Under the pieces are notes generated by a model that did no database searches, was not told where the DNA came from, and worked only from the letters and a program-made list of their open reading frames with translations. 39,535 bases of DNA from Verrucomicrobiota bacterium (GTDB lineage: Bacteria; Verrucomicrobiota; Verrucomicrobiia; JABWAM01), in contig JACQHZ010000166.1 in NCBI GenBank assembly GCA_016198745.1, forward strand, positions 1-39,535. Direction: 5' to 3'. Below are positions 18,921 through 22,581 of this stretch, one piece after another. Both the position numbers and the translations under genes were made by a program. Position 1 is the stretch's first letter. Every line of letters starts with the position of its first letter.

Positions 18921-18949
18921 ATTTCGCGTTCATTCGCTGAATTGACTTG

Positions 18950-18969
18950 CAAAGGTTTTATAACCTTTG
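18950..18969. promoter_or_regulatory. Perfect palindrome upstream of the methyltransferase gene, candidate MerR-type operator
   Basis: CAAAGGTT-TTAT-AACCTTTG, 8-bp perfect arms, 13 bp upstream of the ATG at 18983 and just downstream of a TTGACT -35-like hexamer (18942-18947). Confidence 0.6.
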
Positions 18970-18982
18970 TAGGTTGGTAGGC

Positions 18983-21130
18983 ATGAAAGAGCGCCTTTCC
19001 CTCACCGAAACCGCATCGCTGCTCGGCGTTAGCAAGGAAACGCTGCGAAATTGGGATCGAGCCGGTAAGCTTAAGTCGATTCGCCACCCGGTGAACAACT
19101 ACCGCACCTATGACCGGGAGAAGGTCATGAAGGTGCGAGAGGAACTGACGGCAATCTACCACGTTGGGACTTCCGCTGAGTCCTTCGTGACCGTTACGCG
19201 ACCGGCAACTCAGGAGAGCGGGCTGTCTGAGGATCAGTTCAAGCGCCAGTTGGCGCGGTTGCACAAGTGCTTGCGCGACACTGACGGTGATAGCTCCCTT
19301 GTCGCGCGGTTCGACGAATTGACCAAGCTTTTCTTCATCAAGGTTTTATCGGAAAGCAGCCCTGAAGGCGGGGAGCTTTTCAACCAGTTCCTCGAATCCG
19401 ACCAAGTATTCGCCAAGCGGATTCGGAAGTTTTACGACGACGCCTGCAAGGAGCACGAACACGTCATTCCGCAACGATTTCGCAAGCTCAATCCCTCTGA
19501 TCACGCCCTAGTTGAAGTCGGCAAGATTTTGAGTGCTTTTTCGCTGTCGGGCTCTGTCGCAGATTTTAAGGGAGTCGCTTACGAGGAAGTTGTTCGTAAC
19601 ACTTTTGATAAAGGCGACAACCAACAGTTTTTCACACCACGGGAGATTGCCAGTTTCTTGGTTTCGCTGCTCAAGCCGAAGATCAAGGGCGTCGTCGGTG
19701 ACCCAGCAAGCGGTACAGGAGGATTTTTGGTCGAGATGCTCAAACAGGGCGTTCATCCTTCCCACATGATTGCGCTGGAGATTGATGACCGTCTCGCGTG
19801 GGTTACCGGAGTTAATCTGTTCCTCAACAACGCCCATTCGTTCGAGAGTGTATGTTTGGGTAATAGCGGAAGCCTTGGACACAAAGCGCAACCCTACTTT
19901 AAGCGGTTCAACGCGATTATCACCAATCCGCCGTTCGGTAGTGATTTCTCCGAATCTGCTGCATTGCAGGCATTCGAGCTTGGCAAGGGTTTTACTTCGA
20001 GACGGCGGGGGATTCTCTTCATCGAGCGTTGCTTGGACATGCTCAAAGAAGGCGGATATTTGGGGATGATTATTGACGAGGGCGTACTGTCTTTGCCATC
20101 GACGGCAGACGTAAGACAGCTTATCGGGAAACGAGCCGAGTTGCTGGCAGTCATAAGCCTACCGGAAACGGCGTTCATGCCGTACGCTTCTGTCAACACC
20201 TCGATAATTATTCTGCGCAAGACGAGCAAGCCCTCACAGTCATGCACGACGTTTTACGCAAAGTCGGAACGAGTTGGCCGTAAGCCGAACGGAGAACCTG
20301 ACACCACGTATGATTCTCACGGCAATCCTGTTCCGAACAGCGACCTTCCTCAGATTCTCGAAGCGTGGGAGACGTTTCAGAAAACCGGTAAGTTGTCAGA
20401 CGAGACGGAAACTGCATTCCTCGCCAACCCCTTTGCGGAAGTGGGCGCGACTGAGAACTTGCGTCTCGATTTCCGGTATCATCATCCCGCTCGCCTCCAC
20501 TCAGCTTCCGCTCTCAAAAGGTGCAAGTTCCGTACGGTTACGCTTGGAGAGATTTGTTCGGAACGAAATGAGGTCTTTGTCCCATCGCAGGATTTTGGCG
20601 ACCAGTTCATCTTGCATACCGGGCTTGCACAGATGGAATCGAGAAACGGAATTGCCCGGCAGGTATCTGTGCCGGCTCAATCGTTGAAAAGCACTGTGAA
20701 GAAATTCTACAAGCACGACATTCTTTTTGCTAGGATGCGACCGAACTTGCGCAAGTGTCACTACGTCGAGTTTCAACAGCCTGGATACACTTCGTCTGAG
20801 TGCGTTGTCTTGACGATTCGGGAGGGTGCTGACGGAAAACCGTTCGATCCGTTCGTTCTCTCCGTCCTTCTCCGATCTGATTTCGTTTTTGGGCAGATCA
20901 TGCACCATGTTGCCGGAATCGGACGCCCACGCTTGGCTGCGCATGATTTGAAACAGATCAAGATTCCGGTGCCCCCCCCGGAAGTTCAGGCAGCACTGAG
21001 AGACACCTTCCTCAAGACGCAAGCCACGTACAATGGCCTCCGGGAACAAGCAGAGCAATTGCTGAAACAGGCAGCCAGCTTGGAAGGTCAAGCCGTCGAG
21101 AACGTTGCCAAAGGCCTCTGTGGAGTGTAG
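18983..21130 (+). CDS. MerR-type HTH + HsdM-like N6-adenine DNA methyltransferase + single-TRD HsdS-like specificity domain
   Basis: LSLTETASLLGVSKETLRNWDRAGKLKSIRHPVNNYRTYDREKV (MerR wHTH); GDPASGTGGFLVEML (motif I); NPPFG (motif IV); C-terminal TRD and helical region ending IKIPVPPPEVQAALRDTFLKTQATYNGLREQAEQLLKQ. Confidence 0.9.
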   Translation: MKERLSLTETASLLGVSKETLRNWDRAGKLKSIRHPVNNYRTYDREKVMKVREELTAIYHVGTSAESFVTVTRPATQESGLSEDQFKRQLARLHKCLRDTDGDSSLVARFDELTKLFFIKVLSESSPEGGELFNQFLESDQVFAKRIRKFYDDACKEHEHVIPQRFRKLNPSDHALVEVGKILSAFSLSGSVADFKGVAYEEVVRNTFDKGDNQQFFTPREIASFLVSLLKPKIKGVVGDPASGTGGFLVEMLKQGVHPSHMIALEIDDRLAWVTGVNLFLNNAHSFESVCLGNSGSLGHKAQPYFKRFNAIITNPPFGSDFSESAALQAFELGKGFTSRRRGILFIERCLDMLKEGGYLGMIIDEGVLSLPSTADVRQLIGKRAELLAVISLPETAFMPYASVNTSIIILRKTSKPSQSCTTFYAKSERVGRKPNGEPDTTYDSHGNPVPNSDLPQILEAWETFQKTGKLSDETETAFLANPFAEVGATENLRLDFRYHHPARLHSASALKRCKFRTVTLGEICSERNEVFVPSQDFGDQFILHTGLAQMESRNGIARQVSVPAQSLKSTVKKFYKHDILFARMRPNLRKCHYVEFQQPGYTSSECVVLTIREGADGKPFDPFVLSVLLRSDFVFGQIMHHVAGIGRPRLAAHDLKQIKIPVPPPEVQAALRDTFLKTQATYNGLREQAEQLLKQAASLEGQAVENVAKGLCGV

Positions 21131-21147
21131 GCTCGCTGCCCAACATC

Positions 21148-22221
21148 ATGAGCAATCGAGACTTGGCAAGGGCGCTGCTCCTCCGAGCAGTGGAGCGAGT
21201 GAACAAGAGCGTATCGAAGACGCTGACGGCGAGGCGTTCCATTGAAACTCCCCCGATGGATTCCCGCCACCTCACGGACACGCGCACCAGAGTTTCGACG
21301 CTTTTGGAGTATTCGCTGGCCTACGAAATGAACCATTTGCTCGAAGCGGAGGGTAAGGGATTCAGCCTCTCGGCGGTTCTGTGGAACGTGTTCCCGGATC
21401 TCCTGATGCGCGATGCTTCGAGGACGCCGACAATCGGTTTCGAGGTAAAGGCGCTGCACACCGCTGCTGAGGAGAAATCCGCAAACCTCTCAACACCGCT
21501 TCACATGATCAACAAGGGTGGAGATTTTCTCGTTATCGTCATTTGGGGCTGGCAGCGCGAGGTGGTCGGCTCTGTGAGCATAACCTACCCGCACATTCAT
21601 CTTGTGGAGGTATTCGACGCTTACGTGTTGGCGCAAACGAGGGATTACAGCTGGCTCTTCACACAGGGAAACCGCATCAAAGGGATCGACATTAGCACGC
21701 CGATCATCACGCCGGAAGACAAGCCCAAAGGCGACCGATTCAAAGCTGAAGAAGGCAACATGGGCAAGCTCATGCGCATCGGCCTTGACCCCAACCTGCC
21801 AGCAGAGACCCCGAATTTGGAGGCTTTGAAAGCAGAGGCGGCGACTTATGACGCGTTCAAACAGCGTGTCTTGGCTTTTGGTCTCACCGAGACTTTCCGT
21901 GAAATCTGTTTCCTGCAAGAGGCTGAGAACGTGAAAATGCAAACAGTGCAGGCATATCCAGAAGACCTTCAAATGTTGGGACAAGCCCGCTTGAAGGGCG
22001 GAAACGAGTTCTGCTTGCTGGCAGGGAGGAACTTGTCTCAGTGGCAAAAGGAGGAGGAAATGAAGTCCATTCACACACAAGGCTCAGTGTCCCTCTGGCT
22101 GTCGTCAAAGCTCAACTGGCATGTCCTTCAAAAGGGTGAGCATGGTTGGAAAGTCGTTGGCAGCGGCGAGAAACCCGATAGTGCGTACGACAAAATTGGG
22201 GAGTTACTGGCCAGCAAGTGA
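21148..22221 (+). CDS. Restriction endonuclease, PD-(D/E)xK type, paired with the upstream methyltransferase
   Basis: FPDLLMRDASRTPTIGFEVKAL fits PD...ExK; starts 17 bp after the methyltransferase stop, same strand. Confidence 0.75.
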   Translation: MSNRDLARALLLRAVERVNKSVSKTLTARRSIETPPMDSRHLTDTRTRVSTLLEYSLAYEMNHLLEAEGKGFSLSAVLWNVFPDLLMRDASRTPTIGFEVKALHTAAEEKSANLSTPLHMINKGGDFLVIVIWGWQREVVGSVSITYPHIHLVEVFDAYVLAQTRDYSWLFTQGNRIKGIDISTPIITPEDKPKGDRFKAEEGNMGKLMRIGLDPNLPAETPNLEALKAEAATYDAFKQRVLAFGLTETFREICFLQEAENVKMQTVQAYPEDLQMLGQARLKGGNEFCLLAGRNLSQWQKEEEMKSIHTQGSVSLWLSSKLNWHVLQKGEHGWKVVGSGEKPDSAYDKIGELLASK

Positions 22222-22230
22222 CTGCCCGTT

Positions 22231-22581
22231 CTATTTTTCGGATGTGATTCGATTGCGTAGCACTTGGAAATGCTGTTGCCACTTTGGATCGTAGTTCCCG
22301 CCCGAAGCGTGCTTGATCATTTCTACCAGTTCGTCTCGTGAAGCCACAGGAAACAGCAGTTTTTTCGTGATGTCCCTCACCTCATACTTGGCTGAAATTT
22401 GCTGGATGTTGAACAGGTAGCCGAGACAGTCATCATCCAGTCCCCTGAACGACACACAAAGCGAAACCTTGCCGTCATGTTTCCGCAGAAGTTTCTCCAG
22501 CGCGGCACTGTTGACCTTCTCCAGAAAGAGCTTCTCCTTCGGAAAGGGCAGCTTCATCTCGCCTTGGAAATACTTGGGCAT
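22231..22581 (-). CDS. Hypothetical protein convergent to the R-M genes
   Basis: 116-aa ORF with non-shadow composition, ending about 10 bp from the endonuclease stop. Confidence 0.5.
   Translation of the reverse strand: MPKYFQGEMKLPFPKEKLFLEKVNSAALEKLLRKHDGKVSLCVSFRGLDDDCLGYLFNIQQISAKYEVRDITKKLLFPVASRDELVEMIKHASGGNYDPKWQQHFQVLRNRITSEK

What the first reader, a model, noticed from the sequence alone, without database searches (positions are those of the whole stretch)
18950..22221. R-M locus with a built-in MerR-type DNA-binding domain on a fused M-S methyltransferase
The 18,983 ORF joins a MerR-like HTH, a HsdM-like methyltransferase and a single-TRD HsdS-like module, followed by a separate PD-(D/E)xK nuclease. 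There is no HsdR-type translocase and no separate C protein. Inference: the fused HTH may do the timing job normally done by a controller protein, making the methyltransferase its own repressor or activator. The local composition looks less GC-rich than flanking genes, consistent with horizontal acquisition.
Basis: partly seen in the sequence, partly recalled or inferred. Interest (0 to 1): 0.62.

Follow-up and report, generated by a model that had tools for sequence, protein, structure and literature searches.

The report
Restriction-modification locus with built-in regulator domain
This is a rare relative of the DrdI restriction-modification system whose protective methyltransferase carries its own DNA-binding regulator head, and it comes with a previously unnoticed small partner gene; it is a variant of a known kind rather than something new in principle.

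Summary
Window 18983-21130 encodes one 715-aa chain with a MerR-type HTH, a gamma-class N6-adenine methyltransferase and a single HsdS-like TRD. A PD-(D/E)xK nuclease follows 17 bp later.

The locus belongs to the DrdI kind of Type II system. The methyltransferase is 36% identical to M.DrdI and the nuclease matches R.DrdI (102 bits to the PADLOC model that R.DrdI itself fits at 943 bits). A fused chain without HsdR is ordinary for this class.

The HTH is the unusual part. M.DrdI lacks it, but a Porcincola homologue has it, and it is the best-conserved region between those two proteins (57%), followed by an unconserved linker (10%).

A perfect 8+8-bp inverted repeat, found nowhere else in the 6.4-Mb assembly, ends 13 bp before the start codon. 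Twelve bases of it recur at the same place in Porcincola.

I read the methyltransferase as its own repressor, as M.SsoII is. Because M and R are tandem, this would damp both genes rather than delay R.

Its function is unknown.

New variant of a known kind.

The parts
18945..18974 (.). Putative operator: inverted repeat ACTTGCAAAGGTT-TTAT-AACCTTTGTAGGT (perfect 8-bp arms at 18950-18969), directly before the methyltransferase start
   Evidence: 8-bp perfect arms in 7 of 2000 dinucleotide shuffles; 28 of 1274 window tiles; only site in the 6.43-Mb assembly at up to 2 mismatches; 12-mer AGGTTATAAAAC shared with the Porcincola leader
18983..21130 (+). Fused methyltransferase: MerR-type HTH (aa 1-49), variable linker (50-85), helical N-terminal part, gamma-class N6-adenine MTase (about 191-470; DPASGTGGF, NPPF), single TRD (about 516-650), C-terminal tail; homologue of M.DrdI
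18983..19129 (+). MerR/HTH_17-type DNA-binding domain (aa 1-49), also matched by the mad1 model of the MADS defence system
   Evidence: 57% identical to Porcincola, absent from M.DrdI
21148..22221 (+). PD-(D/E)xK restriction endonuclease, homologue of R.DrdI
22231..22581 (-). Conserved small protein (116 aa), third component of DrdI-type loci, convergent with the nuclease gene; function unknown
   Evidence: held-out recovery at E 2e-6 to 4e-6 among 2613 ORFs

Best explanation
A DrdI-type Type II restriction-modification system that acts as follows. The methyltransferase chain probably pairs with itself and, through its single TRDs, methylates one adenine in each half of an interrupted palindrome; the TRD similarity makes GAC-N6-GTC or a close variant the first guess. 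The separate nuclease cuts the same site when it is unmodified. The N-terminal MerR-type HTH, dimerised by the methyltransferase, binds the inverted repeat just before its own start codon when enough methyltransferase has built up. It thereby represses the tandem M-R transcript, a negative feedback that caps both enzymes. The conserved convergent small protein is an accessory of the system, perhaps a modulator of the nuclease. Shown here: domains, homology to DrdI, conservation of the HTH, existence and uniqueness of the repeat, conservation of the small gene. Inferred: binding, sign of regulation, recognition sequence, role of the small protein.
For: Methyltransferase 36% and nuclease 30% identical to the pDrdI-encoded pair. 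R.DrdI assignment: PDLC03462 matches that plasmid's protein end to end at 943 bits, and M.DrdI is the cloned GACN6GTC enzyme of pDrdI (PMC6430315) described as 2 gammaM~[GAC] (PMC3874165). Same gene order with the HTH in Porcincola. HTH 57% identical against 49% for the MTase core and 10% for the adjoining linker. Unique inverted repeat before the start codon, with a 12-mer shared with Porcincola and, there, two TTATAAAAYATG boxes that occur nowhere else in that 14-kb locus. TRD 52% (Porcincola) and 41% (DrdI) identical, about as conserved as the catalytic domain. Precedent for HTH-headed methyltransferases repressing their own gene: M.SsoII binds a 15-bp quasi-palindrome (PMC3978073; review PMC3874152).
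Against: Only two loci carry the HTH version, so operator conservation rests on two promoters, and the Porcincola 12-mer partly overlaps its ribosome-binding site. About 2% of 62-nt tiles in the window hold an equally good inverted repeat. No sigma-70-like promoter was found before M, so the relation of the repeat to the promoter is unknown. M.DrdI manages without the HTH. The recognition sequence is a guess. The nuclease structure prediction was too poor to use (pLDDT 39).
Confidence: 0.6

Rival explanations
1. The HTH is not an autoregulator but an extra DNA-binding or assembly arm of the enzyme: it anchors the methyltransferase on DNA, or binds elsewhere such as phage or plasmid DNA, and the inverted repeat is incidental or an mRNA hairpin over the start codon.
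For: MerR-like HTHs of this kind also sit on enzymes such as IS607-type recombinases, a ResIII/DEAD helicase and an m5C methyltransferase. Equally good repeats occur in about 2% of window tiles.
Against: The repeat is placed exactly before the HTH gene, is unique in the genome, and shares a 12-mer with the leader of the only other HTH-bearing homologue. M.DrdI does without the HTH, so it is not needed for methylation.
Confidence: 0.22
2. The HTH represses the locus until an outside signal such as phage infection or DNA entry relieves it, so the system is inducible like the RptR-controlled island, rather than simply self-limiting.
For: A HTH of the mad1 type stands alone at the head of another operon with defence-like genes (PADLOC mad1 match; Planctomycetes K2D plasmid operon). 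hsdM behind RptR is upregulated on infection (PMC12255303).
Against: Repressing the protective methyltransferase together with the nuclease and then inducing both at infection would not favour restriction. No ligand-binding domain follows the HTH, only a variable linker.
Confidence: 0.12
3. The locus is a fragment or relative of the MADS defence system (mad1-mad2-mad5 fused).
For: The HTH matches mad1, the MTase mad2 and the Porcincola TRD mad5 in PADLOC.
Against: NCBIfam MAD2 score 152 against a cut-off of 720. The partner is an R.DrdI-like nuclease, and no other mad gene was seen beside it. M.DrdI scores similarly against mad2.
Confidence: 0.03
4. A decaying or orphan R-M locus in which only the methyltransferase functions.
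For: None specific; no clear Shine-Dalgarno sequence is seen before the nuclease gene.
Against: All three reading frames are intact, and catalytic motifs (DPASGTGGF, NPPF; PD...ExK) are complete and conserved.
Confidence: 0.03

Closest known systems
DrdI Type II restriction-modification system (Deinococcus wulumuqiensis 479, plasmid pDrdI, NZ_CP031163)
   Same: Fused gamma-MTase with a single TRD (36% identical), PD-(D/E)xK nuclease (30%), and a homologous small third gene next to the pair
   Different: M.DrdI has no HTH; in pDrdI the small gene and R are divergent from M, with an IS4 transposase gene between small gene and R
Uncharacterised locus of Porcincola intestinalis (L009, NZ_VULZ01000007)
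   Same: Same HTH~MTase~TRD chain (43%), nuclease and convergent small gene in the same order
   Different: Operator-like sequence is two direct TTATAAAAYATG boxes 30 bp apart instead of one inverted repeat
M.SsoII / M.Ecl18kI autoregulatory methyltransferases
   Same: N-terminal HTH on the methyltransferase and a palindromic site before its own gene (PMC3978073, PMC3874152)
   Different: They are cytosine-5 enzymes with a phage-434-repressor-like head, and the R gene is divergent and indirectly stimulated; here an N6-adenine M~S enzyme has a MerR-type head and R lies downstream in tandem
PADLOC PDLC03348 (a 727-aa Type II methyltransferase model)
   Same: Its N-terminus matches this HTH and its body is a gamma-MTase, so HTH-headed Type II adenine methyltransferases are already in sequence databases
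   Different: Only about 59 bits to the whole protein; no described regulation found here
AhdI-like 'Type 1 1/2' systems with a C protein
   Same: Two MTase plus two single-TRD units recognising GAC-Nx-GTC (PMC3874165)
   Different: M and S are separate chains there and a separate C protein (C.AhdI) exists; here one chain and no C gene

Membership tests
DrdI-type Type II system (homodimeric gamma-MTase) | MTase and single TRD in one chain | tested here: met
   PMC3874165 Table 3
DrdI-type Type II system (homodimeric gamma-MTase) | Separate nuclease homologous to R.DrdI | tested here: met
   held-out profile E 1.7e-38
DrdI-type Type II system (homodimeric gamma-MTase) | C-terminal coiled-coil dimerisation helix | tested here: inconclusive
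   The C-terminal tail (651-715) aligns but is only 17-25% identical; no structure made
DrdI-type Type II system (homodimeric gamma-MTase) | Interrupted palindromic recognition site with m6A, cut without ATP | not testable with these tools
   Needs methylome and cleavage assays
Type I restriction-modification | HsdR translocase subunit and two-TRD HsdS | tested here: not met
   No HsdR-like gene in the locus, single TRD
M.SsoII-type self-regulating methyltransferases | N-terminal HTH on the methyltransferase | tested here: met
M.SsoII-type self-regulating methyltransferases | Palindromic site before the methyltransferase gene, bound by the HTH | tested here: inconclusive
   Palindrome present and unique; binding not testable here
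M.SsoII-type self-regulating methyltransferases | Cytosine-5 methyltransferase | tested here: not met
   N6-adenine gamma-class enzyme; may work like one, but is not a member
C-protein-controlled R-M system | Separate small HTH controller gene | tested here: not met
   The only small neighbour (22231-22581 -) has no family or HTH match
MerR transcription regulators | MerR-type winged HTH | tested here: met
   PF00376 33.3 bits, cut-off 28.2
MerR transcription regulators | Dimerisation helix and effector domain after the HTH | tested here: not met
   Unconserved linker 50-85, then the MTase
MADS defence system | MAD2 methyltransferase at the curated score, with the other mad genes | tested here: not met
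   152 bits against a cut-off of 720; no other mad genes beside it

The most novel reading that the evidence does not exclude
DrdI-type systems are three-gene systems: a so far unnoticed small protein travels with M and R in three distant hosts and controls the nuclease. In one branch the methyltransferase has also taken on a MerR-type head that makes one chain the antidote, the specificity factor and the repressor of its own toxin-antidote operon, the first such case for a gamma-class adenine methyltransferase.
Probability: 0.25. Interest if true: 0.58.

Novelty: new variant of a known kind. Interest (0 to 1): 0.42.

Why it matters
R-M systems must balance a toxic nuclease against its protective methyltransferase. 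Known solutions are C proteins, promoter methylation and HTH-headed cytosine methyltransferases. An adenine methyltransferase of the DrdI class with a MerR-type head would show the same solution reached independently with different parts. The placement of similar HTHs on an m5C methyltransferase, on a helicase, and alone at the head of another operon suggests a reusable control module. A conserved third gene beside a well-known enzyme (DrdI) would be an overlooked component that can be tested at once.

Tried and rejected
More homologues were sought and not found: phylum and class of the host (289 and 384 genomes); family, class and phylum of Porcincola (348, 391 and 399 genomes); viral contigs (searches gave none; one search gave only ordinary HsdM-type relatives without this HTH); phages. 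The system is therefore rare and patchy, and operator conservation could not be tested on more than two promoters.

Structure predictions: the nuclease model was too poor to search (pLDDT 39). The small protein (pLDDT 67) had no significant structural match and no significant sequence match among solved structures.

Rejected: Type I (no HsdR), MADS (score far below cut-off), C protein in the small gene (no HTH match). I counted GACN6GTC in the window (9 sites, 12 expected by base composition): uninformative.

Full report
What is there. The + strand ORF from ATG 18983 to 21130 encodes 715 residues. Pfam places a MerR-type HTH at residues 10-43, N6_Mtase at 194-466 and a Type I specificity domain at 564-670, all above their curated cut-offs. 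The nuclease gene starts 17 bp after the M stop (21148-22221). It has no Pfam or NCBIfam family but matches the PADLOC model PDLC03462, a Type II restriction enzyme, at 102 bits.

What kind of system it is. A plasmid search with the methyltransferase gave one strong full-length relative: a gene on plasmid pDrdI of Deinococcus wulumuqiensis 479. A search with the nuclease gave a single hit, on the same plasmid, with only a small gene and a transposase gene annotated between the two. That plasmid protein matches PDLC03462 from end to end at 943 bits, so the model is in effect that protein. The published methylome of the strain lists on pDrdI an active M.DrdI (GACNNNNNNGTC, cloned) and an inactive Type I methyltransferase, DrdORFCP (PMC6430315). 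My hit is the fused M~S gene near the nuclease, and the other HsdM-like gene on the plasmid lies elsewhere, so I assign the pair as M.DrdI and R.DrdI. This assignment is inferred from gene context and models and was not checked in REBASE. The Type I review lists M.DrdI as two identical chains, each one MTase joined to one TRD reading GAC (PMC3874165). The fused chain, the single TRD and the missing HsdR are thus standard for this class.

The HTH. A Porcincola intestinalis locus (L009) has the same chain with the HTH (42-43% identical over the full length), the nuclease directly after it (1-nt overlap), and the small convergent gene. M.DrdI has no HTH, and none was found in the 11.9-kb stretch around it. 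Between window and Porcincola the HTH is the best-conserved part (57%), the following linker the worst (10%), the MTase core 49% and the TRD 52%. The HTH is thus under constraint but is dispensable for methylation as such, which fits a regulatory add-on. Similar HTHs head an m5C methyltransferase beside a vsr gene in Methylobacterium and a ResIII-type helicase in Polymorphobacter, stand alone in front of a helicase-ATPase-methyltransferase operon on a Planctomycetes plasmid, and form the mad1 protein model of MADS. PADLOC model PDLC03348, a Type II methyltransferase of 727 residues, also starts with this HTH, so the fusion as such is not unique.

The candidate operator. The 62 bp between the upstream gene and the ATG hold the inverted repeat ACTTGCAAAGGTT-TTAT-AACCTTTGTAGGT at 18945-18974. 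Perfect 8-bp arms arise in 7 of 2000 dinucleotide shuffles of this stretch, while 28 of 1274 tiles of equal length across the window have one as good. In the whole 6.43-Mb assembly CAAAGGTTNNNNAACCTTTG occurs only here, even with two mismatches. Its core AGGTTATAAAAC (minus strand) occurs exactly once in the 14-kb Porcincola locus, directly before the M start. A shared 11-mer or longer arose in 16 of 5000 shuffles and in 3 of 334 tiles of that locus. Part of the Porcincola match is its AGGAGG ribosome-binding site, so the evidence is moderate. That leader also holds two TTATAAAAYATG boxes 30 bp apart, found nowhere else in the locus.

How it probably works. By established knowledge of the class, the chain dimerises and methylates both half-sites of an interrupted palindrome. 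The TRD is nearly as similar to that of M.DrdI (41%) as the catalytic domain is (45%), so GAC-N6-GTC or a near variant is my first guess (inference). The HTH pair of the dimer would bind the repeat and repress transcription of M and of the tandem R. M.SsoII is the precedent: its N-terminal HTH binds a 15-bp quasi-palindrome and represses its own gene (PMC3978073; PMC3874152). A difference from SsoII and from C proteins follows from the gene order: with R in tandem behind M, one operator would cap both proteins and would not by itself delay R. A delay would need another device, such as weak translation of R; no clear Shine-Dalgarno sequence precedes R.

The third gene. Window 22231-22581 (-) encodes 116 residues without any family match. 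Porcincola has a homologue in the same convergent position, and pDrdI has one divergent from M.DrdI. With a profile built from any two, the third is recovered at E 2e-6 to 4e-6 among 2613 ORFs, and no unrelated ORF scores better than E 0.4. The gene therefore belongs to the DrdI kind of locus. Its role is unknown; the structure search gave nothing.

Rarity and origin. No relative of the nuclease was found in 383 other genomes of the host's class nor in samples of 347 and 398 other genomes from Porcincola's family and phylum. The locus has a lower GC than the window. Both fit horizontal acquisition; the patchy distribution is the stronger argument.

Verdict. Real, correctly observed, and a new variant of a known kind: a DrdI-type system with a MerR-type head on the methyltransferase and an overlooked third gene. 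The self-regulation idea is plausible (about 0.6) but rests on two loci and needs a binding test.

Noticed in passing
window 22231-22581 (-); L009 9172-9513 (-); L010 4338-4793 (-): A small protein family without any annotation accompanies all three DrdI-type loci, including DrdI itself.
   Followed up: yes
L019 5962-7293 (Methylobacterium aquaticum plasmid pMaqPC3): A MerR-type HTH is fused in frame to the N-terminus of a cytosine-5 methyltransferase next to a vsr endonuclease; the deposited annotation starts the gene downstream of the HTH.
   Followed up: partly
L020 5974-12147 (Planctomycetes bacterium K2D plasmid): A stand-alone HTH of the same type heads an operon of RapA-like helicase, AAA protein and methyltransferase that may be an uncharacterised defence operon.
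   Followed up: no
L010 / NZ_CP031163 210489-213841: On pDrdI an IS4 transposase gene sits between the small gene and the presumed R.DrdI gene, which is annotated only as a hypothetical protein.
   Followed up: partly
L023 5025-6962 (Acetobacter pasteurianus plasmid): Another adenine methyltransferase (TaqI-like TRD) with a weak N-terminal MerR-like match.
   Followed up: partly
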